From: Pseudomonadota bacterium
GTDB lineage: Bacteria; Desulfobacterota; Desulfovibrionia; Desulfovibrionales; Desulfovibrionaceae
Length of the DNA stretch: 37,365 nucleotides
Reading direction: 5' to 3'
Assembly (NCBI GenBank): GCA_018817515.1
Contig: JAHIUD010000103.1
Span: forward strand, 1 to 37,365
A program made the translations under genes and the position numbers. Of this stretch, positions 17,050 to 37,365 are shown one piece after another (position 1 is the stretch's first letter; every line of letters starts with the position of its first letter). The notes beneath the pieces were generated by a model that was not told where the DNA came from, ran no database searches, and saw only the letters and a list, made by a program, of their open reading frames with translations.

Positions 17050-17053
<4 letters not shown>

Positions 17054-18045: not shown

Positions 18046-18052
18046 AGGTTTC

Positions 18053-19873: not shown

Positions 19874-21494
<1,621 letters not shown>

Positions 21495-21502
<8 letters not shown>

Positions 21503-22268: not shown

Positions 22269-22281
22269 AGAACAGAGAGCT

Positions 22282-22552
22282 GCCTCCGGCGGCTGTGGGG
22301 CCTGAGGCCCCCCAGACCCCCCCCAGTACGCCGAAAGGGCTGTTTCAGGAGGAACCTGAAACAGCCCTTTCGGCTTGTGTGGGAATCACGGGAGAGCGAC
22401 TTTCTGCAGGTCTTCGGTCTCCCTCCCAAAAGGGGCCAACCGTGCGCAGGTATTTCGGCGTCTTCGCCGAAAACCTGCGCACATTGCCAGGGCCAAGCCC
22501 AGCCAATGCCTCTGCCCCAATCGCCCTGGCCCAAGCCATGCGGGGGGTCCGG
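22282..22552 (+). repeat. Composite hairpin repeat, copy 1
   Basis: In the order seen on this strand: left-end motif GCCTCCGGCGGCTG; hairpin L GGGGCC-TGA-GGCCCC at 22297-22311; hairpin A at 22330-22374 (arm GCCGAAAGGGCTGTTTCAGG, loop AGGAA, perfect 20-bp stem); a spacer ending AAAAGGGGCCAACC; hairpin B at 22442-22482 (10-bp outer arm GTGCGCAGGT, one bulged A, 8-bp inner arm TTTCGGCG, loop TCTT). It ends with a CTCTGCCC motif and a GGTCCGG end. It fills the space between two convergent genes. No coding potential is supported; open frames here are translations of the hairpins. Confidence 0.9.
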
Positions 22553-22594
22553 GGGGACTCGTTCCCCCGGCGGGGTGCAGGGGCGGAGCCCCTG
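22552..22594 (-). terminator. Paired GC hairpins at the permease 3' end
   Basis: Downstream of the permease stop on its own strand lie two short stems, CAGGGG/CCCCTG at 22578-22594 and GGGGGA/TCCCCC at 22552-22568. There is no long U-tract. They abut the right end of repeat copy 1 and probably close the permease transcript. Evidence is structural only. Confidence 0.4.
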
Positions 22595-22609
22595 GCGGGG
22601 ATGCTGAGT

Positions 22610-23827
22610 CTATGACGACAGCACGTCGAGGATTTCGATGCGTGCGGCTTGTCGGGCGGGGTAGGACCCGGCGGCGAGTCCGAGCAGCACGGACCCGGCA
22701 AGGGTGCCCAGGGTCAGCACGGGTTCAAAGACGTAGGGAAAGGACGCCAGTGCGCAGACGATCTGGACGAGTCCGATGCTAGCGGCGGCTCCCAGGGCTC
22801 CGCCGACTCCGGCCATGAGCCCGGCCTCCAGCAGGAACTGGCGCACGATGTCGCGTCGGCTGCCGCCCACGGCTCGGCGGATGCCGATTTCCATGCGTCG
22901 TGCCTGGACCATGAGCACCATGATGGACAGGATGCCCATGCCGCCCACGGCGAAGGAGATGGTGGAGGTGATGACGCCGAGGGTCTGCACCAGATCCAGG
23001 GCTTCGCGCCGCAGTTGCATGGAGTCTGCCGCGGTGAGCAGGCTGAAGTCGTCTTTTTTGCCGTCCAGGTGGTGCCGCTGGCGCAGGATGTCTGCCGAGG
23101 CGGCGCGCACCTGCTCCAAATCCACGCCATCGGCCAGGTGCAGGTAGACGCCGCTGATGAACGTCTGGTTGGCGGCCCGGCGCATGAAGGTGGACAGGGG
23201 CAGAAAGGTCTGCTCGTCCTGGTCTGCGCCGGTAAGGTCGCGGCCCTTGGCCTCCATGACCCCGACCACCTTGAACCGCGCCCGGAAGATGTGCACCTCC
23301 TGGCCCACAGCGGTCTCTGGCCTGCCGAACAGGCGCTCGGCGATCTTGCGGCCCAGCACCACCACCTTGTCCATGTCGTCCACGTCCTGTTGGGTGATGA
23401 AGCGGCCCAGGTCCGGCTTGAAGCTGCGGATGCCGACGTAGGCTGGCCAGGTGGCCAGGATCTGCGTGGTCACCGTGGTGGCCCCGAAACGGATGGGCAT
23501 GGTCCCGGTGTAGTAGGGGGCGAAGTCCAGCACGCCAGGCACGCCCCCGGCCAAGGCCTCGGCGTCGGGCACGGTGAAGTTGCGCACAAACCCGGAAAAC
23601 CGCGCCGAACCGCCGCCCTTGCTGAAGCGACCCTGCCCGGCCATGGCCGCGAACAGGTTTGGCCCGAGTTTTTCGGCCTCGGCCTCGGCGTTCTTGTACA
23701 TGGCCTCGGCCACGTGCTGCACGCCGTTGAAGGACAAGGCTCCCAGGAAAACGCCAAGCATGGCCAGCACCGCGCGCAGCTTGTGCGCGGACAGCGAGGC
23801 CAGGGCGATCTTCAGGTCGAGCAACAT
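22610..23827 (-). CDS. ABC transporter permease, FtsX/MacB family
   Basis: This 405-residue inner-membrane protein has the MacB layout: one N-terminal membrane helix (AHKLRAVLAMLGVFLGALSF), a large periplasmic domain (residues about 45-275) and three C-terminal helices (LGVITSTISFAVGGMGILSIMVLMVQ and two more) ending in the family's PARQAARIEILDVL. The cytoplasmic loop ARRMEIGIRRAVGGSRRDIVRQFLLEA is the ATPase-coupling segment. MacB-type systems extrude lipoproteins, peptides or toxins, often with a partner ATPase and adaptor. Neither partner is in this window. The ATG has no obvious strong ribosome site. Repeat copy 2 lies directly upstream, between it and the Sel1 gene. Confidence 0.88.
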   Translation of the reverse strand: MLLDLKIALASLSAHKLRAVLAMLGVFLGALSFNGVQHVAEAMYKNAEAEAEKLGPNLFAAMAGQGRFSKGGGSARFSGFVRNFTVPDAEALAGGVPGVLDFAPYYTGTMPIRFGATTVTTQILATWPAYVGIRSFKPDLGRFITQQDVDDMDKVVVLGRKIAERLFGRPETAVGQEVHIFRARFKVVGVMEAKGRDLTGADQDEQTFLPLSTFMRRAANQTFISGVYLHLADGVDLEQVRAASADILRQRHHLDGKKDDFSLLTAADSMQLRREALDLVQTLGVITSTISFAVGGMGILSIMVLMVQARRMEIGIRRAVGGSRRDIVRQFLLEAGLMAGVGGALGAAASIGLVQIVCALASFPYVFEPVLTLGTLAGSVLLGLAAGSYPARQAARIEILDVLSS

Positions 23828-23901
23828 GCGCCGACCCTAGCCCCGCTCGCCTGACGAGGCAAGAGATGGAAACAGAGGGGGAGTGTGGGGTACGGCTCGC
23901 G

Positions 23902-24120
23902 CCCCTCTCCATTGGCCTGGGCCGGGGTGGCTTGGGCGCATGCCTCGGCTTGGCGGGCCTGTTGTAGAGCCTTGGTGAAACAACTGAGATGTTTTTCTTC
24001 AACTCACACAAGCCGAAAGGGCTGTTTCAGGTTCCTCCTGAAACAGCCCTTTCGGCGCTCTGGGGAGTCCAGAGGGCCTCAGGCCCTTTGGCGGGGGTTC
24101 AAGGGGGCAACGCCCCCTTG
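23902..24120 (-). repeat. Composite hairpin repeat, copy 2 (lacks hairpin B)
   Basis: Read on the minus strand it begins right after the Sel1 gene stop with a 9-bp stem (24100-24120, CAAGGGGGC/GCCCCCTTG). Then come hairpin L (AGGGCC/GGCCCT, 24073-24087) and hairpin A (24012-24056), whose arms and loop are identical to copy 1. After TTGTGTGAGT and CCAAGGCTC the hairpin B palindrome is missing, but the right-hand CCACCCCGGCCCAGGCCAATG is kept. This copy lies between two genes of the same direction, unlike the others. The remaining 23828-23901 holds no feature I can support. Confidence 0.85.
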
Positions 24121-24122
24121 CG

Positions 24123-25298
24123 CTACCTCGTGCCTGGTTTTTTCGCTTTGAAGCTGACCACGCGGGCATTGAGGGTTTCGAGCTGGCTATGCGACAGTTC
24201 CTTGGCGGCCTGGTCGCGCAGGGCTGGTGCTTCGGGCTGGCCGTGGCGCGCGGCCAGTGCCAGCCAGTAGTAGGCCTGCTCAGGGTTTTTGGTCAGCTCA
24301 CGGCCATCGAGCAGCAGCACGCCCAGGTTGTATTGTGCCTTGGGGTCGCCCAGTTCCGCGGCTCGTGTGAGCAGGTGTTGGGCTTCGGTGGGGTCTTTGT
24401 GGTCGTTGTTGTTGTCGAGCATGATCAGGGCGAGGTTGCACATGGCCCCGGTGTGGTTTCTGCTGGCGGCCTCGCGGTACCAGTGCAGGGCGGCCTCGGG
24501 GTCCTGGGGGGTGCCTTTGCCTTGCTGGCAGTGCAGGGCGTAGGAGTATTGCGCTCTGGCGTGTCCGGCTTTGGCGGCTTTTTGCAGCCAGTGTGCGCTT
24601 TTGCTGGTGTCCTTGCGCACGCCAATTCCCTGGGCGTACATCTGGGCCATGAGGTATTCTGCGCGCGGGTGGCCTGCCTCGGCGGCCTTGAGCATCCAGT
24701 GTGCGGCCTTGGCGTCGTCGCGTTCGAGCCCTTGTCCGCGTGCGTGGGCCAGGGCGAGGTTGTACATGGACTTGACGTGGCCTTGGTTTGCGGCGTTTTC
24801 GTAGAGCTTGGCGGCCTGGGCCAGGTTCATGGGCACGGAGTGGCCGGAGCCCAGCAGTCCGGCCAGGTTGTACATGGCTGCGACGTTGCCGCTGTTGGCG
24901 GCCTTTTCGTACCAGGAGGCGGCCAGAGTGGCGTTTTGCGGCGCCAGTTTTCCCTGGTCGTAGGCCAAGCCGAGGTTGAACTGCGCTTCGGCGAGGCCCT
25001 TCTCGGCGGCCAGCGTCCACCAGCGCACGGCCTCACCCGGCGATTTGGGTGCGTCTTTGCCTATGGCCAGGGCCAAGGCCAGGGCGTTCTGGGCATGGGG
25101 GTCGCCTTTTTGGGCCTTGGTCTGCAGGTCGCGCATTTTCGGGGAGAGGGCGTTCTCGTCCGCCTCAAGCACTGAGGGCTGTGCTGGATTGGCCTTGCTG
25201 GCCTGAGCCGGAGCAGGGGAAAGGCTGGCAAGGGCAATGGCCAAGGCGATGCATGCCGCGCGTATTCTTCTATTTTTGGGGGGGGCGAAACGGGTCAC
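24123..25298 (-). CDS. Exported Sel1-like repeat (TPR-type) protein
   Basis: This 391-residue protein has a signal peptide (RRIRAACIALAIALASLSPAPAQA, cleavage near AQA). It then has about eight Sel1 repeats of 36 residues, each with the A-x2-W-x3-A-A-x2-G-x2-x-A-x-Y/F-x-L-G/A pattern, such as AVRWWTLAAEKGLAEAQFNLGLAYDQG and AAHWMLKAAEAGHPRAEYLMAQMYAQG. Sel1 solenoids act as protein-protein scaffolds in the envelope. GTG 25298 is chosen: AGGAGG lies ten bases upstream and the signal follows directly; the open frame to 25358 has no ribosome site. Promoter boxes lie at 25361-25389. No partner can be named. Confidence 0.88.
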   Translation of the reverse strand: MTRFAPPKNRRIRAACIALAIALASLSPAPAQASKANPAQPSVLEADENALSPKMRDLQTKAQKGDPHAQNALALALAIGKDAPKSPGEAVRWWTLAAEKGLAEAQFNLGLAYDQGKLAPQNATLAASWYEKAANSGNVAAMYNLAGLLGSGHSVPMNLAQAAKLYENAANQGHVKSMYNLALAHARGQGLERDDAKAAHWMLKAAEAGHPRAEYLMAQMYAQGIGVRKDTSKSAHWLQKAAKAGHARAQYSYALHCQQGKGTPQDPEAALHWYREAASRNHTGAMCNLALIMLDNNNDHKDPTEAQHLLTRAAELGDPKAQYNLGVLLLDGRELTKNPEQAYYWLALAARHGQPEAPALRDQAAKELSHSQLETLNARVVSFKAKKPGTR

Positions 25299-25360
25299 GT
25301 ACGGAGAACCTCCTGGAGAATGGGGAAGGCGGCGGCGGGTGGACGCCGGACAGCACACTC

Positions 25361-25389
25361 ATTGTAGGCTCGCCAGCAACGGATGTCCA
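25361..25389 (-). promoter_or_regulatory. Sigma-70 promoter for the Sel1 gene
   Basis: On the minus strand TGGACA (25389-25384, 5/6) and TACAAT (25366-25361, 5/6) are separated by exactly 17 bases. Transcription would start near 25354, leaving a leader of about 55 bases before GTG 25298. This is one of the two best promoter matches in the window. Confidence 0.6.
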
Positions 25390-25638
25390 CTCCCGGTGGT
25401 GCTGGCGGGAGAGTCTTGCTGGGAGGGGAAGCAATGGTGCTTGCAAGGTTGTCCATTGCATTATCAGCCTAAAGCGTAACCTTAAAAGGTAGAAATATTG
25501 AGCACAGAACGCAAATAGGCAATCCTATACATGTTAATTTGAAATAGTTCTGGACTCCGCAGCGCTAGTGGTAATAGATATGCCTCCAACTATTCCACAG
25601 GGACTGCTTTTGCAATCCCGAGAGCACGGAGGAGCGTC
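25390..25638. other. Intergenic, AT-rich, no gene supported
   Basis: With 25299-25389 this makes a 340-base gap. Bases about 25440-25600 are markedly richer in A and T than the rest of the window, as expected for divergent promoters of the Sel1 gene and the small plus-strand gene at 25639. No RNA gene, repeat copy or clear plus-strand -35/-10 pair is visible. Confidence 0.5.
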
Positions 25639-25884
25639 ATGCATTGCATTCTTTTGCTTCCTGATGCCGCAGGGCGGGTGCCCACGGCCAAGGAGTTGCG
25701 GCGGCGAGGGTTCGCGGTTTCAGAGGCTGTGGAGCGGCCTGGGGCACGTCTGACGAGCGGAGACGCACTGGCCGGAAAGGGGCGCTACGCAAAGTATGCC
25801 GAGGCCGAACGACAGGCGCCAGGCTTGGGCCAGGCCGCCGAGGAGCAGGCGTGTTATGGCGAGCCGCACGCGCAAAAGCCTTGA
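25639..25884 (+). CDS. Small hypothetical protein
   Basis: This 81-residue open frame starts at an ATG with GGAGGAG seven bases upstream, a strong site that is hard to dismiss. The protein begins MHCILLLPDAAGRVPTAKELRRRGFAVSEAVERPG, which looks like a folded alpha/beta start, and becomes Ala/Glu/Gln-rich. No family is recognised and no signal peptide is convincing. It is convergent with the Hsp20 gene. It may be real but small; the main support is the ribosome site and the AT-rich upstream region. Confidence 0.45.
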   Translation: MHCILLLPDAAGRVPTAKELRRRGFAVSEAVERPGARLTSGDALAGKGRYAKYAEAERQAPGLGQAAEEQACYGEPHAQKP

Positions 25885-25972
25885 CCCGGCCGGAGCCAAA
25901 GCGGGAGGGGCTCCCCCGGCACTTTCGTCCAGGGGAGCCCCTGCTCATGTCGCGTCCCCTGGGGCCGCGCGT

Positions 25973-26344
25973 CTAGGCTGTCTGCACCGGAATGCGGCGC
26001 GGGGCCAGCTTTTCCATGCGCGGCAGGTGCAGGGTGAGCACCCCGTCCTTCAGGCTGGCCTTGATGCGTTCGCGGTCCACCCGGTCGGAGAGGGACACGG
26101 CGCGCACGTACTCGCCGGGCCCGAATTGCACCTCAAGGAAGGATTCCTTGTCGGAGGCGCCTTGCAGCGCGCGACCGGTTACGGTGATCTCGTTCTCGTT
26201 GATGTCGATGCTCAGGTCCTCGCGGCGCACGCCGGGCAGGTCCATGAACACGTAGAAGCCGTCCTCGCGCTCCAGGATGTCCGTGGCCGGGCTGACGCGC
26301 GGCAGGGTCTTGGCCTCGTTGCTGTTTGCGGTGTTCTCGCTCAT
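25973..26344 (-). CDS. Small heat-shock protein, Hsp20/alpha-crystallin
   Basis: This 123-residue chaperone holds unfolding proteins in a soluble state. The alpha-crystallin domain runs from about residue 20 to 115: PATDILEREDGFYVFMDLPGVRREDLSIDINENEITVTGRA, then the signature ASLKDGVLTLHLPR (A-x-x-x-G-V-L). A C-terminal RRIPVQT supplies the I-x-I/V-like tail used in oligomers. ATG 26344 has AGGAGG upstream; the open frame to 26443 is extra. It sits 25 bases after a second Hsp20 gene on the same strand, so the two form a pair of the IbpA/IbpB kind. Confidence 0.93.
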   Translation of the reverse strand: MSENTANSNEAKTLPRVSPATDILEREDGFYVFMDLPGVRREDLSIDINENEITVTGRALQGASDKESFLEVQFGPGEYVRAVSLSDRVDRERIKASLKDGVLTLHLPRMEKLAPRRIPVQTA

Positions 26345-26369
26345 TTGCTGTCCTCCTGCTGGCGCGGCC

Positions 26370-26780
26370 TTAGGCCACGTCGATGCTGATCTTCCTGGGG
26401 ATGCAGCCCTCGCACTTGGGCAGAACCACGGTGAGCACGCCATCGGCCAGGGTGGCGCGCACCTTGTCGCGGTCCACGGGCACGTTCAGGGCCACCACGC
26501 GCTGGAAGAACCCTGCAGGGCGCTCCTGCCGGTAGTACTTGCCCTGCTCCGTGGGTCTCTCGCCCCGGATGACCAGGCTCTTTTCCGTCAGGGTCAGCTC
26601 CACGGCGTCCAGCGCCATGCCGGGCACCTCGGAGCGTATGTAATAGTTGGCCTCGTCCTCGCTCACGTTGAGCGGTGGAAAGGCCATTCTGCGTCCTTCT
26701 CCGGGCTGGGGCCTGAAGAAGTCCTCGATGAGCCGCTCAAAACGGCCGGGGTAGTAAATTGTGTTGAAGTCGAGCACCAT
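26370..26780 (-). CDS. Small heat-shock protein, Hsp20/alpha-crystallin, first of the pair
   Basis: This 136-residue chaperone has a longer N-terminal arm (FNTIYYPGRFERLIEDFFRP) and a crystallin domain with NVSEDEANYYIRSEVPGM and the signature ATLADGVLTVVLPK. It ends with the tail PRKISIDVA. It is clearly diverged from the gene downstream, so the two probably form mixed oligomers. The start has a good site (AAGGAGG, spacing 9). A sigma-70-like promoter lies just upstream; I see neither a CIRCE element nor a well-spaced sigma-32 promoter, so heat regulation is not shown by sequence. Confidence 0.93.
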   Translation of the reverse strand: MVLDFNTIYYPGRFERLIEDFFRPQPGEGRRMAFPPLNVSEDEANYYIRSEVPGMALDAVELTLTEKSLVIRGERPTEQGKYYRQERPAGFFQRVVALNVPVDRDKVRATLADGVLTVVLPKCEGCIPRKISIDVA

Positions 26781-26813
26781 GATGCCAGCCTCCTTATCTT
26801 GAATTGTGCCGAA

Positions 26814-26841
26814 AAAATAAATCGGGCGGAGCGGCAGTCAA
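26814..26841 (-). promoter_or_regulatory. Candidate promoter for the Hsp20 pair
   Basis: TTGACT (26841-26836, 5/6) and TATTTT (26819-26814, 4/6) on the minus strand are 16 bases apart. The overlapping CTTGAC...CCCGATTTA resembles a sigma-32 promoter, but its spacer of about 10 bases is too short for that class. The leader would be about 30 bases. Confidence 0.4.
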
Positions 26842-27349
26842 GAGGCTGCCACGCAAGTTCTTAACATGATGCGGCGACCTGTGGAGAAAAGCGGAAATCA
26901 GGGAGGGGGAAATGCTGCGGCTGTGGAGATCGCGGCTTTGACGGACGGCTTGTGGAGTGGCTTGGCGGGGCTGGGCCCAAAGTTGTGCGCCGCTTCCCGG
27001 TTCTCCCGGGTGGACCTAGACCCTCTTTTGTCCGGGCCTGCTGGTCACTCTTGCGGCGCGTGCGCTCTTTCTTGGCGTGGGGCGGCTCAATCCGCCATTC
27101 TGTCATAAGGTGCTGGGGGTCTATTCGTGCACACCCTCCGTTGCGGGTTCGCCCGAGAACCGATCCCTGGACCTTCCAGAGGAGTCCTTGGTTCAAATAC
27201 TAGCCATGAGCCGGGGAAAGTAAAGTGGTATTTTGCGCGCCAGCCAAGCCGGGCTGCCAACCCAGCCTCCGGGCGGCACATTTTTCTTGCAAGCCGTCGG
27301 CAGATGCGGGAGAAGTGGGCATGCAAAAGGCCCAGGAGGTCTGCCGTCC
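26842..27349. other. Intergenic region, no gene supported
   Basis: About 500 bases between the divergent Hsp20 pair and the Cys-rich gene. A minus-strand frame (26861-27196) encodes a very basic, Pro-rich protein without a ribosome site, and plus-strand frames lack one too. Bases near 27188 read TTGGTTCAAATAC, like a tRNA T-loop, but no acceptor stem, D-arm or anticodon arm can be fitted. A GGTTC/GAACC hairpin lies near 27146-27161. Function, if any, is unknown. Confidence 0.4.
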
Positions 27350-27709
27350 ATGCCGAGCCGTTCCATCTTCACCCGCAAGGGTCTGGCCCCTGCCGCGCTC
27401 TTTACCCTGGCGTTCACCCTGAGCCTGTTGTGTCTGCCGGGCCCGGCCTTGGCCGTGAGCGCCGACTGCCCGGCCCTGTTCGAGCTCTACCGCGCCTGCA
27501 ACGCCGAGGGGCAGCAAACCGACCACAGCAAGGCCTGCCTGGAGGCCAGCTCCGAGGCCATGGCCCGCGCCCTGGTCAAAACAGTCCGCAAAAGCCCCCA
27601 GACCGCCCGCGCCCTGGTGGAACTGGTCTGCAACACCGGCTGCGACGACGCCCTGACCCGCCAGCCGCCAGCCACCCGGCAGGAGTTCAGCGAGGCCTTC
27701 TGCGACTGA
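27350..27709 (+). CDS. Small exported Cys-rich protein
   Basis: This 119-residue protein has a signal peptide (FTRKGLAPAALFTLAFTLSLLCLPGPALA, cleavage near residue 35). The mature domain of about 84 residues has six Cys (ADCPAL, RACN, KACL, LVCNTGC, AFCD), spaced for disulfides or metal binding in the periplasm. No family is recognised. ATG 27350 has AGGAGG about ten bases upstream. The DUF362 ferredoxin-like gene follows after 32 bases on the same strand, so the two are probably one transcript. The longer open frame from 27233 carries no ribosome site and adds a Pro/Gly-rich leader. Confidence 0.75.
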   Translation: MPSRSIFTRKGLAPAALFTLAFTLSLLCLPGPALAVSADCPALFELYRACNAEGQQTDHSKACLEASSEAMARALVKTVRKSPQTARALVELVCNTGCDDALTRQPPATRQEFSEAFCD

Positions 27710-27741
27710 GCCTGTCCACCGCAAACATCAAGGAGTCCACC

Positions 27742-28866
27742 ATGGCCAGCAAAGTCTACTTCTGGAATCTGCGCGCCAGCATGAAGGCCCCCTACGACCA
27801 GCGCATCCATCGCCTGCTCGAGCGCACAGGCTTTGCCGGGCACGTGGCCAGCGGCGAGCTCGCGGCGGTAAAAATCCACTTCGGCGAGCGCGGGGTGACC
27901 GGCCACGTGCAGCCACTCATGGTCCGGCCCATCCTGGCGGAGCTCACCCGCGCCGGGGCCAGGCCCTTCTTGACCGACGCCAGCACCCTCTACGTGGGCC
28001 AGCGCGGCGAGGCCGTGAGCCACGCCATGCAGGCCGCCCTGCACGGCTACGACCCGCTGCTGATGGGCGCGCCGGTGATCATCGCCGACGGGCTCAAGGG
28101 CGCCTCCCAGGTGGCCCTGCCCGTGCACGGCGGCAAGCACTTCAAGGAAGCCTTCATCGCGGCGGATATCGCCGAGGCCGACCTGCTCGTGTCCATCAAC
28201 CACCTGAAGGGCCACGAACTGGCGGGCTTTGGCGGCGCGCTGAAAAACATCGGCATGGGCGCGGCCAGCAAGCAGGGCAAGATGCAGCAGCACGTCACCA
28301 CCGGCCCCCTGGTGGACGAGGCGGCCTGCAAGGGCTGCGGCGCCTGCGTCGGCATCTGCGCGGCCCAGGCCTTGGCTCTGCTGGATGGCCTGGACGGCAA
28401 ACCGCATGTGTTGCTGAACCTCGACGCCTGCCGTGGCTGCGGCGCCTGCTTCCTGGCCTGCAAGAACGGCGGGCTCACCATCAACTGGCAGACCGACGTG
28501 GCGGAATTCCTGGAGCGCATGATGGAGTACGCGGCGGCGGTCCTGCTCTCGCGCCCCAAGCCCAGCCTGCACATCTCCTTTGTCACCAACGTCACCCCGG
28601 ACTGCGACTGCATGGGCTTTTCCGACGCGCCCATCTGCCCGGACATCGGCGTCCTGGCCTCCCTTGACCCCGTGGCCATCGACCAGGCCGGTATCGACCT
28701 GGTGAACAAGGCCGAACCCCTGTGGCCCAGCCACCTGCCCAAGGGCCTCAAGGCCGGGCAGGACAAGTTTCTGGCGATGCGGCCCAACCTGCCCCCGGCC
28801 ATGGGGCTGGATTATGCCGAGGACCTGGGCCTGGGCAGCCGGGAATACGAACTGGTGGCCCTGTAA
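27742..28866 (+). CDS. DUF362 protein with two [4Fe-4S] ferredoxin motifs
   Basis: This 374-residue protein begins MASKVYFWNLRASMKAPYDQR and carries the DUF362 fold, with VKIHFGERGVTGHVQP (residues about 35-50), FLTDASTLYVGQR and LKGHELAGFGGALKNIGMGAASKQGK. It is followed by two clusters, CKGCGACVGIC (near 196) and CRGCGACFLAC (near 235). A final CDCMGFSDAPICPDIGVLAS segment adds Cys residues. The family's reaction is not established; electron transfer is clear from the motifs. The start has AAGGAG at good spacing. Any open-frame extension upstream of 27742 is not coding. It is likely co-transcribed with the Cys-rich gene before it. Confidence 0.88.
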   Translation: MASKVYFWNLRASMKAPYDQRIHRLLERTGFAGHVASGELAAVKIHFGERGVTGHVQPLMVRPILAELTRAGARPFLTDASTLYVGQRGEAVSHAMQAALHGYDPLLMGAPVIIADGLKGASQVALPVHGGKHFKEAFIAADIAEADLLVSINHLKGHELAGFGGALKNIGMGAASKQGKMQQHVTTGPLVDEAACKGCGACVGICAAQALALLDGLDGKPHVLLNLDACRGCGACFLACKNGGLTINWQTDVAEFLERMMEYAAAVLLSRPKPSLHISFVTNVTPDCDCMGFSDAPICPDIGVLASLDPVAIDQAGIDLVNKAEPLWPSHLPKGLKAGQDKFLAMRPNLPPAMGLDYAEDLGLGSREYELVAL

Positions 28867-28903
28867 CCACACCCGAGCGCCAAGCAAAGCCCGGGTCGGC
28901 CCC

Positions 28904-28932
28904 TTGACGCGTTTGGTCAGCGGGCGCACAAT
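28904..28932 (+). promoter_or_regulatory. Candidate promoter for the CBS-domain gene
   Basis: TTGACG (28904-28909, 5/6) and CACAAT (28927-28932, 4/6) are 17 bases apart. Transcription would begin near 28939, about 45 bases before the ATG at 28984. Confidence 0.5.
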
Positions 28933-28983
28933 AAACGCACAACCGCCTCCCCTGGCGCGGTCCCTAACCCTGGAGGTGCCGCC

Positions 28984-29517: not shown

Positions 29518-29538
29518 GCCACCAGTCAGGGGCGCTGC

Positions 29539-29802
29539 GCCTCCGGCGGCTGTGGGGCCTGAGGCCCCCCAGACCCCCCCATTAAGCCGAAAGGGCTGTT
29601 TCAGGAGGAACCTGAAACAGCCCTTTCGGCTTGTGTGAGTCATGGGAGAACTTTCTGGTGTCTTTGCCAAGGCTCAAAAAGGGGCCAACCGTGTTCGGAT
29701 TTCCGAGGGTCTCCCCTCGAAAATCCGAACACATTGTTTGCGGCCAGCCAAGTCTTGCCCTCTGCCCCGGCCACCCCTGGCCTAGGCCAATGGGGGGGCC
29801 GG
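29539..29802 (+). repeat. Composite hairpin repeat, copy 3
   Basis: Same order as copy 1: GCCTCCGGCGGCTG; hairpin L GGGGCC/GGCCCC at 29554-29568; hairpin A at 29586-29630, identical arms and loop, here extended to 22 bp by AA/TT; spacer with CATGGGAGA and AAAAGGGGCCAACC; hairpin B at 29691-29732, outer arms GTGTTCGGAT / ATCCGAACAC, inner 9 bp with one C-A mismatch, loop TCTC. Then come CCTCTGCCC, GGCCAATGG and the right end. It lies between the convergent CBS and CobQ-fusion genes. Confidence 0.9.
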
Positions 29803-29828
29803 GGGCAGCGCCCCTGGCGGCCAAAGGT

Positions 29829-32606
29829 CTAGCCCAGCAGGCTGCCGGGCCGTGTGAGGCCGAGGGTCTGGTACACGCGTTTCATGTCCAGGTGTTGGCG
29901 CAGGGCAGCGGCGAGGCGTTCCAGGGCGGGTTCCAGGCCGAAGCGGGTCTGCGGGTCGCGCAGGGGTTTGAGTCCTTTGGCTTGGCGCAGGTCGTCGAGG
30001 AAGGCGCGCCGGAAGGCGTCCTCGTCGAAGACGCCGTGCAGGTAGGTGCCCCATATTCGCGGCAGGGAGCGCGGCAAGCCGCTTGGGGCCTCGAGGCCGA
30101 AGGAGAGCGGCCGGCCTGTGGAGTCCTGGGCCAGGGGCAGGGCTTGCTGTCCGGGCGTGTCGACGATCTCGGTCTGGCCGTGGTGGATCTCGTAGCCGGT
30201 GAGGGTTTGGCTGGTGCGCAGGCAGGTGGCGCTCATGCGTGTGAGGGTCTTGTCGCGTTCGAGGGTGGTGACGAGCGGCAGCAGGCCGAATCCGTCGGCG
30301 CTTTTCTGGCTGGATTCGAGGCCGAGCGGGTCGTCCACGCGCAGGCCGAGCATTTGCAGGCCCGCGCAGATGCCGATGATGCTGGTGGAGTCCGGCAGCC
30401 CGCGCAGTGCGGCGGCAAAGCCAGCGCCGCGCAGGGCCCGCATGTCCTCGATGGTGTTTTTGCTGCCGGGCAGGATCACGGCGTCCGGGGTCTTTCCGTC
30501 GGGGGCGAGTTCGCGCACATCGTGGACGAGGCGCAGGCGCACGTCGGGTTCTGCGGCCAGGGGGTCCAGGTCGTTGAAGTTGGAGATGCGCTGCGGGACC
30601 ACAACCGCGATATCAAGTGAATCTGGATGCTTGCTGTTTTTGTCTGCAACGGTGTTGCGGATGCCGAGGGAGTCCTCCTCGGGCAGGGCCAGGTCGTGCA
30701 GGTAGGGCACCACGCCGAGCACGGGCCGCCCGGTGCGGCGGTAGAGGAAATCCAGGGCGGGCGTGAGGATGCTGGCGTCGCCCCGGAACTTGTTCAGCAC
30801 ATGGCCCACGACCAGGGCGCGCTCCTCGGGGTCCAGGATGTCGAAGGTGCCGGAGAGCGCGGCAAAGACCCCGCCCCGGTCGATGTCGCCCACGAGGAGC
30901 ACCTTGGCGCCCGCGTGCCGGGCCATGGCCATGTTCACGATGTCCTGGTGCTTCAGGTTGACCTCGGCGGGCGAGCCCGCGCCCTCCAGCACCATGAGCC
31001 CGTGCTCCGCCGCGAGGGAGTCGTAGGCGCTCGTGGCGGCGCGCCAGGCCTCGGGCTTGTAGGCGTGGTACTCTTGCACGTTCATCTGGCCCACGGGGCG
31101 GCCCAGGATGACCACCTGGGAGCCGGTGTCGCCGGTGGGCTTGAGAAGCACCGGGTTCATGCGCACGTCCGGGGTGAGGCGGCAGGCCTGGGCCTGGGTG
31201 GCCTGAGCCCGGCCTATCTCGCCTCCCCCTGCGCCCTTGTCAGGCGTTACGGCGGAGTTGTTGGACATGTTCTGGGCCTTGAAGGGCGCGACGTCGAAGC
31301 CGTCCTCCAGGAGGATGCGGCACAGGCCCGCGGCCAGCACGCTTTTCCCTGCGTTGGAGCAGGTGCCCTGGATCATCACCGCCGGGGTCCTTCGGACCTT
31401 TATGGGGGAGGGCGCCTTGATGACGCCGGAGAAGCGCCCCAGGGCGTCCACCAGCCGGACGTTTTCGTCCTTTGTGCGCACGGCGATGCGGAAATAGCTG
31501 TCGTCCAGGCCTTCGAAGTTGGCGCACAGGCGCAGGGCCAGGCCTTCGGAGAGCAGGCGCTCGAACAGGGGCTGAGCGGTCATGCCCACGCGGTCCAGGC
31601 GGCAGAGCAGGAAGTTGGCGTTGCCCGGGAACACCCGCAGGCCGGGAATCTCGCGCAGCTCCTTGGTGAGCGCCTCGCGCAGGGAGGCCACCTCGCGCAC
31701 GGTGCGCTGCTGGTAGTCCAGGTCGCGCAGGGCCCGCGCGCCCACGCGCTGGGCCAGGGTGCCGACGTTCCAGGCGGGCAGCCTGCGGCGCAGGCGGGCG
31801 ATGGTCTCCGGCGCGCCGAAGCACAGGCCCAGGCGCAGGCCCGGCAGGGCGTAGAATTTCGTCAGCGACGACAGCACGATGACGTTGTCCGGCCGCAGGC
31901 GCACCAGCCTGCCAGCCCCGACAGCAGCGCCGGGCTCGCGGCCCGTGCCCTCGTTTTCAATGCCCGGCACGAAATCGGCGAAGCTCTCGTCCACCACGAA
32001 CAGGCTGGCCGGAAAGGCCTTGGCCAGGTCGCGCACGTGGCGCGCGGGGATGACCACGCCCGTGGGGTTGTTGGGGCTGGTGAGCATGACCACTGCCGGG
32101 GCGGCGGGCGTGAGCATCCCGGCCAGGCGCTCCAGGTCCGGCGCGAAGAGGTCCTGGGCGCGGCAGGCCAGCGTCTCGACAGTCAGCCCGGCCAGGCGGC
32201 AGCAGCGGTCCACGTCCACGTAGGCGGGCACCGGAATGATGGCCCGCTTGAGACCCATGCGCGCGGCCAGGTTGCAGACCGCGGGCAGGAGTTCGGAGGC
32301 GCCGTTTCCGGCCAGGGCCTGGGTGGGCCAAACCTTGTAACGCTCGCAGGCGGCCAGGGTCAGGTCCGCGGCCTCGGGGTCCGGGTAGTGGACCACATCC
32401 GTCAGGGAGCTGGCGATCTCCTCGGCCAGCCAGGACGGCGGGCCAAGGGGGTTGATGCTGGCGGAGAAGTCCACCAGTTCGCCGGGCCGGACGCCTGCGC
32501 GTTCGGTGAGCTTGTGCACGTTGCCGCCGTGGGCGTAGCGGTCGGTCTCGGTCTGCTGGCGCTGGCCTGCGGAAGGGGCCAGGCCGCTCAGGGTATTCTG
32601 GCGCAT
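29829..32606 (-). CDS. cobQ: Fusion of CobD-like PLP decarboxylase and cobyric acid synthase (CobQ)
   Basis: One 925-residue protein holds two cobamide enzymes. Residues about 25-385 are a fold-type I PLP enzyme of the CobD/HisC group: HGGNVHKL at the start, SPNNPTG near 174, and SSLTKFYALPGLRLG with PLP-binding Lys250. CobD makes the aminopropanol phosphate linker from threonine phosphate. Residues about 410-925 are CobQ, which amidates adenosyl-cobyrinate a,c-diamide to cobyric acid. They show P-loop GTCSNAGKS (414-422), LVGDIDRGGVFA, the glutaminase nucleophile Cys747 in GICAGLQMLG, and His857 in YLHGVF. All key residues are present. ATG 32606 has AAGGAG upstream; the open frame to 32783 overlaps the neighbouring gene. 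No cobalamin riboswitch is visible upstream. Confidence 0.92.
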   Translation of the reverse strand: MRQNTLSGLAPSAGQRQQTETDRYAHGGNVHKLTERAGVRPGELVDFSASINPLGPPSWLAEEIASSLTDVVHYPDPEAADLTLAACERYKVWPTQALAGNGASELLPAVCNLAARMGLKRAIIPVPAYVDVDRCCRLAGLTVETLACRAQDLFAPDLERLAGMLTPAAPAVVMLTSPNNPTGVVIPARHVRDLAKAFPASLFVVDESFADFVPGIENEGTGREPGAAVGAGRLVRLRPDNVIVLSSLTKFYALPGLRLGLCFGAPETIARLRRRLPAWNVGTLAQRVGARALRDLDYQQRTVREVASLREALTKELREIPGLRVFPGNANFLLCRLDRVGMTAQPLFERLLSEGLALRLCANFEGLDDSYFRIAVRTKDENVRLVDALGRFSGVIKAPSPIKVRRTPAVMIQGTCSNAGKSVLAAGLCRILLEDGFDVAPFKAQNMSNNSAVTPDKGAGGGEIGRAQATQAQACRLTPDVRMNPVLLKPTGDTGSQVVILGRPVGQMNVQEYHAYKPEAWRAATSAYDSLAAEHGLMVLEGAGSPAEVNLKHQDIVNMAMARHAGAKVLLVGDIDRGGVFAALSGTFDILDPEERALVVGHVLNKFRGDASILTPALDFLYRRTGRPVLGVVPYLHDLALPEEDSLGIRNTVADKNSKHPDSLDIAVVVPQRISNFNDLDPLAAEPDVRLRLVHDVRELAPDGKTPDAVILPGSKNTIEDMRALRGAGFAAALRGLPDSTSIIGICAGLQMLGLRVDDPLGLESSQKSADGFGLLPLVTTLERDKTLTRMSATCLRTSQTLTGYEIHHGQTEIVDTPGQQALPLAQDSTGRPLSFGLEAPSGLPRSLPRIWGTYLHGVFDEDAFRRAFLDDLRQAKGLKPLRDPQTRFGLEPALERLAAALRQHLDMKRVYQTLGLTRPGSLLG

Positions 32607-32728
32607 GGGCGCTCCTTGGCGAAGTTGGTGGCAAAGGTGTGGACGCTGCCTGCATGATGTAGCCCGGATGCGGCGTGTGGGCAAGGCGGACGAAAACCGT
32701 GCGCCCGCAGGCGGCAAGTTGCAGGCGG

Positions 32729-33676
32729 CTACCCGAAGGCGGCCACAGGCTGCGGTGAGCAGGCGGGCTGCCTGCTCCCGCACCAGGTGGGGGGCGGGTC
32801 GCCTGCCAGGGCGGCGGCCATGCCCTGGCGCTGGGCGGCAAGGGCGCGCACCAGGGGCTCGTTGTCGCCGTCATGCTGGATGTCCGGCAACTGCGAGGGG
32901 TCAAGCTCCAGGGACACCGTCCCCGTGTATCGCGCCTGGCCAAGCCGGGCCAGGAACGGGCCCAGCGGAAGCACGCCCTGGCCGGGCGGCAGGTGCTCGG
33001 TGTAGCCCGAGGCGTCGGAAAAGTGCACATGCCTGAACAGCCCCGGCGGGACCTTGTCCAGGTCCGTCAGCACGTCTCGGTCGGACACCCCCAGGTGGCA
33101 GACGTCGAGCGTCAGGCCCAGGCCCTTGGCCCGACACTCCGCCAGGAGCTCGGCGAGGTTGTCCTTGGCGAACAGCCCGCCGCCCCCGAGGTTGGACGAC
33201 CAGGGCAGGTTCTCCAGGGAAAGGCTGACGCCCGGGGCCACATCCAGCAGGCGGGGCAGGTCCACGGCGCGGGAGAACCAGCGGGTCTGGATGGCGTCGC
33301 GGATGGTCCCGGCGGGCGGGTGCAGGGTCACATGGACGTTGTGGCCGTTCTCGGCGCAGACCAGCCCGCCCGCAAGATCAACGGCGGCGCGCCAGGCGTT
33401 CAGGTGCCCGCCCCAGGCGCTCCAGTTGCGAAAGGGCGCATGCACCACGCGCACCGGGCAGATGGCGTGGGCGGCCTCAACCTCCGCGCCGGGCGCGATC
33501 TTCGGCGAACCCATGACCAGGTCCAGCCCGGCAAAGCCCGCAGCGCGGGCAATGGCGGCAATCTGCGGCAGGGGCAGATGGAACAGGCAGCCCGTGGACA
33601 TGACGACCAGCGGGAGCGGCCTGTCCTGTGCTGGCCTGTCGTGAGAGGCTGCCTGGGTGTGCGCGGGCTCGTCCAT
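32729..33676 (-). CDS. TIM-barrel protein, sugar-phosphate isomerase/AP-endonuclease-2 family
   Basis: This 315-residue protein belongs to the xylose-isomerase-like TIM barrel family, with likely metal ligands spread as SLENLPW (Glu), LTLDVCHLGVSD (Asp, His), HVHFSDASG (His) and VSLELDPS (Glu). Members are sugar isomerases, epimerases or endonuclease IV; the specific reaction is not readable. The start is uncertain: ATG 33676 has GGAG too close, and ATG 33601 (MSTGCLFHLPLPQ) starts right at the barrel. The first 25 residues look like a loose leader. It lies upstream of the cobamide fusion on the same strand, about 120 bases away. That neighbourhood hints at cobamide metabolism, but this is only context. 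Confidence 0.78.
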   Translation of the reverse strand: MDEPAHTQAASHDRPAQDRPLPLVVMSTGCLFHLPLPQIAAIARAAGFAGLDLVMGSPKIAPGAEVEAAHAICPVRVVHAPFRNWSAWGGHLNAWRAAVDLAGGLVCAENGHNVHVTLHPPAGTIRDAIQTRWFSRAVDLPRLLDVAPGVSLSLENLPWSSNLGGGGLFAKDNLAELLAECRAKGLGLTLDVCHLGVSDRDVLTDLDKVPPGLFRHVHFSDASGYTEHLPPGQGVLPLGPFLARLGQARYTGTVSLELDPSQLPDIQHDGDNEPLVRALAAQRQGMAAALAGDPPPTWCGSRQPACSPQPVAAFG

Positions 33677-33833
33677 GCTCCGGTTTAGGCACCACGCGGG
33701 TCAAGTCTCAACGCAAATCCGGGGAACGGCGGACAGGCGTTGGTGAACGGCGGCCCGTTGCGGCGAGCGTTATCGGGCCGAGGCAAAGACCCTGGGCAGC
33801 GGCCACGCCCGGCACACTGCCCGGGCCTCCGGG

Positions 33834-33862
33834 TTGACAAAACCCGCAGGCACGCGAATATT
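33834..33862 (+). promoter_or_regulatory. Sigma-70 promoter for queD-dtd
   Basis: TTGACA (33834-33839, perfect) and AATATT (33857-33862, 4/6) are 17 bases apart. The start point would be near 33869, about 40 bases ahead of ATG 33911. No preQ1 riboswitch fold could be drawn in this short leader. Confidence 0.6.
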
Positions 33863-33910
33863 TCCAGAGTCAGCGCACACAGCGGCCCAAGCGGCCGGGG
33901 AGGTTACACA

Positions 33911-34300
33911 ATGGCCGGAAAATGGCGACTCACCGTGGACGAGGCCTTCTGCGCCTCGCACCAGCTGCGCAACTACAACGGCAAGTGCGAGCACCTGCAC
34001 GGGCACAACTTCGGCGTCACCGTCGAGGTGGAGGGCGGCGACCTCGATCCCGCCGTGGAGATCCTGGTGGACTTCGGCGAGCTCAAGCGTCTCACGCGGG
34101 AGGCCGTCGGCGCGCTGGACCACAGCCACCTGAACGACCTGCCCGCCTTTTCTGAGCGCAACCCCTCCAGCGAGAACCTGGCCCGGCATCTGTACCAGGA
34201 GATCAAGGACAGGCTGGTGGTGGCCGCGCCGCACGTGCGCCTCGCCAGCGTCAGCGTGTCCGAGAAGGGCACCTCGCGCGCGACGTACATGGAGGACTGA
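33911..34300 (+). CDS. queD: 6-carboxy-5,6,7,8-tetrahydropterin synthase (queuosine/archaeosine pathway)
   Basis: This 129-residue PTPS-family enzyme converts dihydroneopterin triphosphate to 6-carboxytetrahydropterin, the second step toward 7-deazaguanine. The signature FCASHQLRNYNGKCEHLHGHNFGV (residues about 12-35) holds the zinc-binding His residues and the catalytic Cys of the CxxxHGH motif that marks QueD. LDHSHLNDLPAFSERNPSSENLA and a C-terminal SVSEKGTSRATY complete the family pattern. ATG 33911 has GGGAGG eight bases upstream; the open frame from 33740 is a leader without such a site. The last base of the stop is the first base of dtd (TGATG). queA in this window works later in the same pathway. 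Confidence 0.92.
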   Translation: MAGKWRLTVDEAFCASHQLRNYNGKCEHLHGHNFGVTVEVEGGDLDPAVEILVDFGELKRLTREAVGALDHSHLNDLPAFSERNPSSENLARHLYQEIKDRLVVAAPHVRLASVSVSEKGTSRATYMED

Positions 34301-34782
34301 TGCGGCTCTTGCTCCAGCGCGTGAGCCGCGCCCGAGTGGATGTGGCAGGCGCCGCCGGGCCTGTGGCGGCGGGCGGGATAGGTCCCGGCCTGCTGGTGCT
34401 GGCCGGGTTCGGCAAGGCCGACACCCTGGACCTGCCCGGCACGCGTCTGTGGACCACCCTGTGCGCCAAGCTCCTCGACCTGCGCATCTTCCCCGATGAC
34501 GCGGACAAGCTGAACCTGAGCCTCAGGGACACGGGCGGCGGGCTGTTGCTGGTGTCGCAGTTCACGCTCTACGCCGACACGCGCCGGGGCCGCAGGCCGA
34601 GCTTCAGCGCTGCCGCAGCGCCGGAGTTGGCCCGCGCGCTCTATGACCGCCTGGCGGCGGACCTGGCCGCAAGCGCACCCGGAGACTTCGCCCAAGGCGT
34701 GTTCGCAGCCGAGATGTGGCTTGATTTCGTGAACTGGGGGCCGGTGAGCATCCTGCTCGACTCGGCTGACTACGCGGACTAG
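34300..34782 (+). CDS. dtd: D-aminoacyl-tRNA deacylase
   Basis: This 160-residue chiral proofreading enzyme removes D-amino acids, and glycine from tRNA-Ala, from mischarged tRNA. The family motif LLLVSQFTLYADTRRGRRPSF (residues about 84-104) and the C-terminal Gly-cis-Pro element, here NWGPVSI, form the active site. The Gly-Pro pair is intact. It begins MRLLLQRVSRARV, the family norm. It is coupled to queD by the TGATG overlap, so both respond to the promoter upstream. It is convergent with the cyclic-nucleotide-binding gene with 26 bases between the stops. Confidence 0.93.
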   Translation: MRLLLQRVSRARVDVAGAAGPVAAGGIGPGLLVLAGFGKADTLDLPGTRLWTTLCAKLLDLRIFPDDADKLNLSLRDTGGGLLLVSQFTLYADTRRGRRPSFSAAAAPELARALYDRLAADLAASAPGDFAQGVFAAEMWLDFVNWGPVSILLDSADYAD

Positions 34783-34808
34783 GCTGCCGACGAAAACGGG
34801 GCTTACAC

Positions 34809-35303
34809 TCAGCGGGCCAGGCGCACCGGGGGCCAGGGGGCGCTCTCCGCCACCCTCTTGTTCGCCTCGCGCAGGCGTTCGGCCATGTTCTCGGCGATGG
34901 TCTGGTTGAAGGCGTTCTTCAGGGCGACCCGGTTGGACTCTTCCATGCGGTTGAACAGCGACGCATCCAGGGCCAGGCAGAGGGACGGGGTGCGGGCCTT
35001 GACCGTGGCCGAACGTGGCCCGCCGTCGATGAGGCCCATCTCGCCGAACATGTCTCCGAAACGGTTCAGCCGGTGCACCGGGATGCCCTGGTGGTTCACC
35101 TCAAGTTCGCCATGCACCATAAAGTATATCCAGGGATCGCTGGAACCCTCCAGGATGATGATCTCATCCTTCTCATATTTACGGATTTTGGACATGCGCA
35201 CCACCTCGGCCAAGAGCTCGTCCGGCAAGTGGGCCATGGTCGGAATGCTGCGCATTTGTGCTATGATTTCAGCATTTGATGGATCGAATTTGATTTCCTT
35301 CAT
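34809..35303 (-). CDS. Cyclic-nucleotide-binding domain protein
   Basis: This 164-residue protein is essentially one CNMP-binding domain: IRKYEKDEIIILEGSSDPWIYFMVHGELEV followed by the phosphate-binding cassette FGDMFGEMGLIDGGPRSATVKA, with the Glu and Arg that hold the cyclic phosphate. The C-terminal helix (NRVALKNAFNQTIAENMAERLREANKR) contains no HTH, so this is not a Crp-type transcription factor; it probably regulates a partner by contact. ATG 35303 has GGGGAA five bases upstream and a very good promoter behind it. The longer open frame to 35462 runs past that promoter and is rejected. Confidence 0.88.
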   Translation of the reverse strand: MKEIKFDPSNAEIIAQMRSIPTMAHLPDELLAEVVRMSKIRKYEKDEIIILEGSSDPWIYFMVHGELEVNHQGIPVHRLNRFGDMFGEMGLIDGGPRSATVKARTPSLCLALDASLFNRMEESNRVALKNAFNQTIAENMAERLREANKRVAESAPWPPVRLAR

Positions 35304-35337
35304 GGCATTCCCCGCAAAAATATCTACACCACGATTT

Positions 35338-35366
35338 GTTATACATCGAGAAGTTGGCGCTGGCAA
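35338..35366 (-). promoter_or_regulatory. Strong sigma-70 promoter for the CNMP gene
   Basis: On the minus strand TTGCCA (35366-35361, 5/6) and TATAAC (35343-35338, 5/6) are separated by exactly 17 bases. This matches the Sel1 promoter as the best in the window. The start point would be near 35331, leaving a leader of about 28 bases. The thioredoxin gene begins on the other strand within 75 bases, so the two are divergently arranged. Confidence 0.65.
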
Positions 35367-35439
35367 GCCGCCCGGAAATAATCTCGGCCACGCCTCCTGA
35401 GGCCTTGCGCCCGGTCGCGCCATGCTTATCCTTTTGGCC

Positions 35440-35865
35440 ATGAAACACCTCATCTGTCCCACCTGTCATGCCGTGAACCGTGCTGATGAAACACGCCTCA
35501 ACCTGGCCGTGTGCGGCAAATGCGCCCGCCCCCTGGCCGGTGTGGAGGTGCTGCACCTGGACGCGCCCCTGCTGGACCGCCTGCTGGCCAAGGACGAGCT
35601 GCCGCTCCTGGTGGACTTCTGGGCGCCGTGGTGCGGCCCGTGCAAGATGATGGCTCCGGCCTTTGAGGAGGCGGCGCGGCTGCTCGGCCCGGGCGTGCGC
35701 CTGGGCAAGGTGGACACCCAGCAGCACCAGGCGCTGGGCGCGCGCTTCCAGGTCCAGTCCATCCCCACCCTGGCGCTGTTCCGGGGCGGGCGCGAGGTGG
35801 ACCGCATGTCCGGGGCCATGCCCGCCAAGGACATCGTGGCCTGGACGCGGGGTCGGCTGGGCTAG
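35440..35865 (+). CDS. trxC: Thioredoxin 2 (TrxC-like) with N-terminal zinc finger
   Basis: This 141-residue protein has the N-terminal zinc site of Trx2, CPTC (near residue 6) and CGKC (near 26), then a thioredoxin fold with the active site WAPWCGPCKMMAP (near 62) and the cis-Pro loop SIPTLALFRGG. It reduces disulfides in the cytoplasm and is often linked to oxidative stress. Two starts are possible, ATG 35440 (MKHLICPTCH, the family norm) and ATG 35422; neither has a good ribosome site. The 25-bp tandem repeats begin 36 bases after its stop. Confidence 0.9.
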   Translation: MKHLICPTCHAVNRADETRLNLAVCGKCARPLAGVEVLHLDAPLLDRLLAKDELPLLVDFWAPWCGPCKMMAPAFEEAARLLGPGVRLGKVDTQQHQALGARFQVQSIPTLALFRGGREVDRMSGAMPAKDIVAWTRGRLG

Positions 35866-35900
35866 GCGGGTTTTAGGCCCCAGGCGGCCAGGGGCGGAAC

Positions 35901-35975
35901 CTGGGATGCCTCCGGCGGCCTGAGCCTGGGATGCCTCCGGCGGCCTGAGCCTGGGATGCCTCCGGCGGCCTGGGG
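35901..35975 (+). repeat. Three tandem 25-bp units derived from the repeat's left-end motif
   Basis: Units at 35901-35925 and 35926-35950 are identical (CTGGGATGCCTCCGGCGGCC plus TGAGC). The third (35951-35975) matches for its first 22 bases and then runs into GGGGCCTGAGGCCC, a hairpin L sequence. Each unit contains GCCTCCGGCGGC, the left end of the composite repeat. The trx 3' end therefore seems to carry its own truncated, locally amplified left module. Bases 35986-36045 hold no further feature I can support. Confidence 0.85.
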
Positions 35976-36045
35976 CCTGAGGCCCATCTATGCTGTCGAC
36001 AGCCGTAAGATTCGCGGAAAGACCGCTCATCATAACGGCTGACGC

Positions 36046-36316
36046 CCGGACCCCCCATTGGCCTGGGCCGGGGTGGAGCGGGCAGAGGCGTTGGCCGGGC
36101 TGGCCCTGGCAATGTGTACGGATTTTCAAGGGGGGACCCTCGAAAATCCGTACACGGTTGGCCCCTTTTTGAAGCGAAACGAAGACCTACAGAAAGTCGC
36201 TCTCCCGTGACTTCCTCAAGGAAAGCCGAAAGGGCTGTTTCAGGTTCCTCCTGAAACAGCCCTTTCGGCGCAATGTGGGGGTCTGGGGGACTTCAAGTCC
36301 CCCAGCCGCCGGAGGC
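36046..36316 (-). repeat. Composite hairpin repeat, copy 4 (inverted)
   Basis: Read on the minus strand from the ilvD stop: GCCTCCGGCGGCTG; a hairpin L variant (36283-36305, CTGGGGGACTT/AAGTCCCCCAG); hairpin A at 36225-36269 identical to the other copies; TCACGGGAGAGCGACTTTCTG and AAAAGGGGCCAACC, shared with copy 1; hairpin B at 36114-36155 with outer arms GTGTACGGAT/ATCCGTACAC; then CCTCTGCCC, GGCCCAGGCCAATGG and GGTCCGG. It lies between the convergent trx and ilvD genes. Confidence 0.9.
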
Positions 36317-36323
36317 TCTGCTC

Positions 36324-37364: not shown

Positions 37365-37365
37365 G

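What the first reader, a model, noticed from the sequence alone, without database searches (positions are those of the whole stretch)
22282..36316. A composite hairpin repeat occurs four times in 14 kb, always at gene 3' ends
Seen directly: copies at 22282-22552 (+), 23902-24120 (-), 29539-29802 (+) and 36046-36316 (-) share a fixed order of modules: left motif, hairpin L, 45-nt hairpin A, spacer with AAAAGGGGCCAACC, hairpin B, CTCTGCCC and an AATGG/GGTCCGG end. In every copy the end bearing hairpin L faces the stop codon of the adjacent gene. Four copies in 14 kb imply a great many in the genome. I recognise no named family. Inference: a REP/MITE-like palindromic element, or a 3'-UTR RNA structure that sets transcript ends or stability.
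Basis: partly seen in the sequence, partly recalled or inferred. Interest (0 to 1): 0.88.

Follow-up and report, generated by a model that had tools for sequence, protein, structure and literature searches.

The report
Repeated two-way transcription terminator cassette
A roughly 270-base sequence that recurs dozens of times in one genus of sulfate-reducing bacteria looks like a pair of opposed "stop transcription" hairpins placed between genes that run towards each other, and its parts differ between species at the same site while the layout is kept.

Summary
The repeat is real. Strong matches were seen only in the host's genus, which is Humidesulfovibrio by contig-length match. In 46 host loci two covariance models give, after mirror hits are dropped, 53 hairpin-A and 41 hairpin-B sites: 33 composites, 20 A-only, 8 B-only.

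Best reading: two opposed intrinsic terminators. Hairpin A has its T-rich tail mainly on the left-to-right side (30 of 31 host copies scored). Hairpin B has a T-run of 4 or more only right-to-left (23 of 37 against 0 of 37). Composites lie between convergent genes in 24 of 31 cases (background 39 of 199 gaps). A-only copies have a stop codon on the L side (17 of 19), B-only on the R side (7 of 7). Both stems covary. At copy 1's gene end four relatives carry a different, classic hairpin instead. At copy 3's site a relative keeps the layout with another hairpin A.

It is not RAYT-linked REP (no Y1 transposase in 15 genomes), and 12 clean-ended copies show no target duplication. No Rfam match in the window, and no described family in the searches made.

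Termination itself is untested, B is the weaker half, and several copies are decayed. Filed as a new variant of a known kind: repeated extragenic terminators.

The parts
22282..22323 (+). copy 1, left end module with hairpin L (GGGGCCTGAGGCCCC)
22330..22374 (+). copy 1, hairpin A: predicted terminator of the gene ending at 22268
22375..22381 (+). copy 1, T-rich tail of A (TTGTGTG)
22428..22431 (-). copy 1, T-run of B when read right to left (AAAA on +)
22442..22482 (-). copy 1, hairpin B: predicted terminator of the gene ending at 22610
22543..22605 (-). copy 1, right end module (inverted, different sequence from the left one)
   Evidence: read by eye
24012..24056 (-). copy 2, hairpin A
24057..24120 (-). 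copy 2, left end modules
23902..23956 (-). copy 2, right-end remnant; hairpin B missing
29539..29580 (+). copy 3, left end module
29586..29630 (+). copy 3, hairpin A
29691..29732 (-). copy 3, hairpin B (T-run on - at 29676-29680)
36277..36316 (-). copy 4, left end module
36225..36269 (-). copy 4, hairpin A with tail TTTCCTT at 36224-36218; also flagged by the generic terminator scan
36114..36155 (+). copy 4, hairpin B (T-run on + at 36166-36170)
35984..36045 (+). unit X, a separate 62-nt repeat lodged in copy 4's right end module

Best explanation
The composite is a two-way transcription-termination cassette. Hairpin A plus its T-rich tail ends the transcript of the gene on the hairpin-L side. 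Hairpin B, closed by a conserved GGC.CAA/TTG.CC base and followed by TTTT on the opposite strand, ends the transcript of the gene on the other side. Both predicted 3' ends fall in the spacer between the hairpins, so transcripts of convergent genes would stop before they overlap. The flanking end modules are a more general 3'-UTR repeat. The family is dispersed in part of the genus Humidesulfovibrio, and the contents of a site are replaced or homogenised while the layout stays. Shown here: structure, T-tail direction, gene context, covariation, different hairpins at orthologous sites. Inferred: that RNA polymerase stops there, and how copies spread.
For: Directional tails: T-tail score 2.71 after A left-to-right against 0.57 on the other side, higher in 30 of 31 host copies scored (of 39 elements) and 55 of 55 named-genome copies scored (of 69); a T-run of 4 or more after B right-to-left in 23 of 37, against 0 of 37 on the other side (37 of the 41 B sites scored). 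Context: composites between convergent genes 24 of 31, against 39 of 199 gaps of 30 nt or more in 426 kb of the same genome, window and element-bearing gaps included; A-only: stop on the L side 17 of 19, R side mixed (12 of 18); B-only: stop on the R side 7 of 7 (5 of 5 within 250 nt), L side mixed (4 of 8). Covariation: A, 6 of 20 pairs and 23 cells changed on both sides (2.7 in shuffles; 47 of 82 extracted copies, picked by hand to include variants); B, 16 of 24 pairs and 132 cells (36.8 in shuffles; 50 of 52). Stable hairpins, z -5.1 to -9.7 for seven window segments. Orthologous gene ends: at copy 1's gene G002, G003, G012 and G013 carry GGCAGGGGCCGG..CCGGCCCCTGCTG (then TTTT in three of the four), while G008 has end module + A; at copy 3's site G003 has the same layout with an unrelated hairpin A and a TTTG tail. 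Of eight A-slot hairpins listed outside the main class, six have stems of 17-22 pairs of clearly different sequence with T-containing tails.
Against: No RNA 3'-end data. Many A tails are imperfect (TTGTGTG, TTTGGTG). A broader count over all 53 A sites is less clean: T in 12 nt higher left-to-right in 46, lower in 5. 14 of 37 B copies lack a T-run of 4, and 5 carry a CCCTTCCGGG hairpin there instead. Copy 1's B, folded right-to-left, puts the T-run into another small stem. A generic terminator scan of 20000-37365 is not enriched over shuffles (10 against 12.4) and flags only copy 4's A among the copies. Only 13 of 33 orthologous gene ends without the family element score as terminator-like under a strict T threshold (38 of 660 shuffles), and one of the 13 (L190) is itself an A-type hairpin (4 of 37 rows with the element were left out beforehand). 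50 of 82 extracted A hairpins are identical, and double changes in palindromes can also come from templated repair (recalled), so covariation alone does not prove selection on RNA. Eight B sites have no A and three B sites have lost most of the hairpin. 7 of 31 composites are not between convergent genes by my gene caller.
Confidence: 0.7

Rival explanations
1. A mobile palindromic element (MITE or REP-like) that inserts downstream of stop codons; the hairpins serve transposition as single-strand DNA, and gene-end location reflects where insertion is harmless.
For: Dozens of dispersed copies, patchy among 15 genus genomes (B in 6; A in 12, five of them with 6 rows or fewer; no A in 3); inverted end modules; decayed copies; two host contigs end in copies.
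Against: No Y1 transposase in 15 genomes; no target duplication longer than 1 nt in 12 clean-ended copies; no match of copy 1 in the plasmid or phage collections, one match of the A core at the end of a viral-labelled contig beside a non-phage gene; T-tail direction and half-element contexts are not predicted by mobility alone; 14 of 61 host sites share both flanking genes with an element in a named genome, so many sites are old.
Confidence: 0.16
2. mRNA 3' stabilisers or RNase III processing sites: the long stems protect upstream mRNA from exonucleases or are cut, without terminating.
For: Long near-perfect stems (20 bp) near stop codons; stems kept by compensatory change.
Against: Does not explain T-tails on one side, nor the opposite polarity of A and B, nor a classic T-tailed hairpin in the same place in relatives.
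Confidence: 0.1
3. A protein-binding site or RNA sponge: the CAGGAGGAACCTG apex of hairpin A (with GGA motifs) binds a regulator such as CsrA (motif recalled, not from a call).
For: The apex is common to most A copies; but the named copies were fetched by an exact core match and the alignment copies by a pattern that fixes part of the apex, so its constancy is partly by construction.
Against: Host copies L064, L066 and L074 have changed apexes; A-slot hairpins of the other class lack it; 4 of 82 apexes are inverted. CsrA was not searched for.
Confidence: 0.03

Closest known systems
Inverted DNA uptake sequences used as terminators (Neisseria, Pasteurellaceae; PMC1852404, passages read)
   Same: A genome-wide repeated sequence forms terminator hairpins, enriched between convergent genes.
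   Different: There a short signal (9-11 nt, generally 1,000 copies or more) pairs with itself; here a ~270-nt composite with two different opposed hairpins, tens of copies, and several interchangeable stem sequences.
REP/BIME with RAYT
   Same: Dispersed extragenic palindromes at gene ends, mosaic of modules.
   Different: No Y1 transposase in 15 genomes; 45-nt hairpins with one-sided T-tails.
MITEs
   Same: Short, non-coding, inverted ends, dispersed.
   Different: No target duplication seen in 12 copies; end modules occur without the core.
Ordinary bidirectional intrinsic terminators
   Same: Stop both strands between convergent genes.
   Different: Described as one hairpin flanked by A's and T's (passages of PMC1852404, PMC1590033); here two separate one-way hairpins in a repeated cassette.
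Geobacter 'multicopy nucleotide sequences' (PMC2996986, passages read)
   Same: Intergenic repeat families, some palindromic.
   Different: The passages read name no terminator role or composite layout; sequences not compared.

Membership tests
Intrinsic (Rho-independent) terminator | Stable hairpin followed by a T-rich tract on the transcribed side | tested here: met
   A: 30 of 31 and 55 of 55 scored copies with the higher T-tail score on that side; 46 of 53 in a broader count. B: 23 of 37 with T>=4 against 0 of 37; so not met in 14 of 37 B copies.
Intrinsic (Rho-independent) terminator | Lies just 3' of the gene it ends | tested here: met
   composites 24 of 31 between convergent genes; A-only 17 of 19; B-only 7 of 7 (two of these over 1.4 kb away). 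Own gene caller.
Intrinsic (Rho-independent) terminator | RNA polymerase stops there | not testable with these tools
   No RNA data held.
REP (RAYT-associated) | Y1 transposase (PF01797) in the genome | tested here: not met
   0 of 15 genus genomes; the control rings in 5 of 14 known genomes.
MITE | Target-site duplication | tested here: not met
   0-1 nt in the 12 of 61 copies with both end motifs.
MITE | Terminal inverted repeats matching a transposase-bearing element | tested here: inconclusive
   Ends are often inverted copies of one module, but the module also stands alone; other transposase families not searched.
DNA uptake sequence terminators | Single short signal, about 1,000 or more copies per genome | not tested
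   Single arms were not counted; hairpin copies number in the tens.
Any Rfam 15 family | Score above gathering threshold | tested here: not met
   0 matches in the window; other loci not scanned.

The most novel reading that the evidence does not exclude
A shuffling pool of transcription terminators: within one bacterial genus, gene 3' ends exchange whole terminator hairpins through shared end modules (recombination or conversion), so a site keeps a two-way terminator while its sequence is replaced from elsewhere in the genome, spreading the cassette without a transposase.
Probability: 0.25. Interest if true: 0.72.

Novelty: new variant of a known kind. Interest (0 to 1): 0.52.

Why it matters
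Convergent genes must stop transcription on both strands, and how terminators arise and are replaced is poorly known. This family offers tens of natural replicates per genome, with orthologous sites where the terminator differs, so terminator turnover and transcript-collision control can be tested directly. The covariance models also give a marker for gene 3' ends in Humidesulfovibrio genomes.

Tried and rejected
Rfam scan of the window: nothing. Plasmid and phage collections with copy 1: nothing. RAYT/REP: rejected as membership. Target duplications: none in 12 copies. A clean insertion of the composite into an ancestral sequence was looked for at the window sites (whose output was cut in the middle): at copy 1 the whole 3' region differs and the relatives' hairpin is not seen in the host, so replacement rather than plain insertion. 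Orthologous copies as simple vertical descendants: in 11 of 13 compared pairs the host copy is more like some other copy than its orthologue (biased, a maximum over 24), and the orthologue exceeds the mean of own-genome paralogues in 8 of 13 (12 host copies, one used twice). A generic terminator scan did not help. Literature searches gave no description of this family; beyond listings I saw passages of four papers and the outline and abstract of one.

Rows dropped before counts: mirror-strand hits of the palindromes (47 of 100 A rows, 27 of 68 B rows); 35 of 82 extracted A copies left out of the A alignment, keeping variants; 2 of 52 B copies left out; 4 of 37 orthologous ends that carry the element left out.

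Full report
What is there. The window is contig C50 of a 3.6 Mb, 114-contig genome. A 25-nt core of hairpin A has exact matches in 58 stretches of the GTDB r220 contig set, in MAGs titled Desulfovibrionales, Deltaproteobacteria, delta proteobacterium, Proteobacteria, Humidesulfovibrio and, once, Bacillota. The host's genus is Humidesulfovibrio by inference: the same-genus genome G008 has contigs of 9,405 and 19,251 bases, the lengths of two records of Humidesulfovibrio sp. Ess09-03. Likewise G002 matches HGW-Deltaproteobacteria-8 (374,331) and G003 GWA2_65_9 (41,878). The four copies are as described, with two corrections: copy 2 has lost hairpin B, and the right end is usually the end module inverted.

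Anatomy. From left to right: end module (GCCTCCGGCGGC, hairpin L, GACCCCC); hairpin A (20 bp, 5-nt loop); T-rich tail; a spacer of about 50 nt; AAAAGGGGCCAACC; hairpin B (about 19 bp); CATTGCCAGGGCC; CTCTGCCC; AATGGGG; inverted end module. Read from the right, B is followed by GGTTGGCCCCTTTT.

Copy number and range. blastn with copy 1 gives 93 rows that merge to about 40 places. Covariance models of B (R1) and A (R2) give 70 rows (E 0.01) and 117 rows (E 0.0001) in the host, mirror hits of the palindromes included. In the 46 host loci then searched, 53 A and 41 B sites remain after mirror hits are dropped: 33 A+B, 20 A-only, 8 B-only. The listing was cut, so these are lower bounds. Across 15 genus genomes B is in 6 and A in 12, five of these with 6 rows or fewer; G013 has A without B. 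Outside the genus 5 of 44 genomes of the family or order give weak blastn matches (E 7e-4 to 6e-6), which I take to be the end module but did not check; the models were not run there.

Why terminators. Each hairpin has its T-tract mainly on one side, and the sides are opposite. The gene context of whole and half elements follows the same polarity: composites lie between convergent genes (24 of 31; background 39 of 199); A-only copies have a gene ending on the A side, with the other side mixed; B-only copies have one on the B side, with the other side mixed. Gene calls are from my own codon-usage caller, not an annotation. In 69 elements of the named loci the L side is a stop in 55 of 66 and the R side in 38 of 53. 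Stems keep pairing through double changes beyond shuffles. Compensatory change in terminator stems is a published pattern (PMC5381666, abstract read), and Desulfovibrio desulfuricans G20 is listed with a high-confidence terminator in 62% of 661 robust tail-to-tail regions (PMC1852404, passages read).

Different contents at the same site. At the gene ending at 22268 four relatives carry one shared classic hairpin, G008 has end module + A, and the host has the composite. At the copy 3 site G003 has the full layout with a different hairpin A; at copy 4's gene G012 shares AGCAGAGCCTCCGGCGGC and then has another hairpin, and G003 has a composite with different A and B contents (by eye). In the host itself six A-slot hairpins listed have clearly different stems of the same size and tail. 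Of 61 host elements, 31 share a flanking gene end with an element in a named genome and 14 share both, yet such orthologous elements are only 60-85% identical over 13 pairs, about as alike as paralogues. This argues for turnover of contents at stable sites.

Decay. Eight B sites have no A; six of these show a remnant of it by eye. Three B sites span only 32-33 nt, and copy 2 of the window has lost B. So single copies are dispensable.

What remains open. No transcript data exist here; B is the weaker half of the case. The mechanism of spread is not shown: no transposase of the Y1 type, no target duplications, other transposase families not searched. After rechecking, the weaker T-tail count and the hand-picked A alignment are stated, and the confidence is set at 0.70.

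Noticed in passing
window 35984-36045; G000:C85:17770-17838; L273-L292: Unit X: a 62-nt repeat (79-100% alike; 8 of 15 genus genomes, also G004 where the models found no A or B) that by eye mostly sits inside the apex or 3' half of an end-module hairpin, as if inserted there site-specifically; several G008 copies lie at contig ends.
   Followed up: partly
L089:5122-5149, L102:1756-1783, L268:6040-6067: A motif TTTTGGCCNGTAAAAGGACNANAATTCC stands shortly before an A copy in three records; in L268 a TTGACA follows it. Perhaps a promoter of a short RNA that ends at hairpin A.
   Followed up: no
window 17566-18051: Long 12-nt tandem array, about 25 units in register, within the ORF 17050-18045.
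   Followed up: no
window 35892-35985: Tandem 25-nt repeats containing GCCTCCGGCGG just outside copy 4; GCCTCCGGCGG occurs 16 times in 426 kb (2.2 expected), and 11 of its 12 intergenic places have a gene stop on its 5' side.
   Followed up: partly
L268 (IMGVR_UViG_3300029821_000025): A contig labelled viral ends in end module + hairpin A near an acyl-CoA dehydrogenase-like gene; perhaps host flank.
   Followed up: partly
B copies in L066, L068, L071, L072, L077: A CCCTTCCGGG hairpin replaces the T-run after B in 5 of 37 copies.
   Followed up: no
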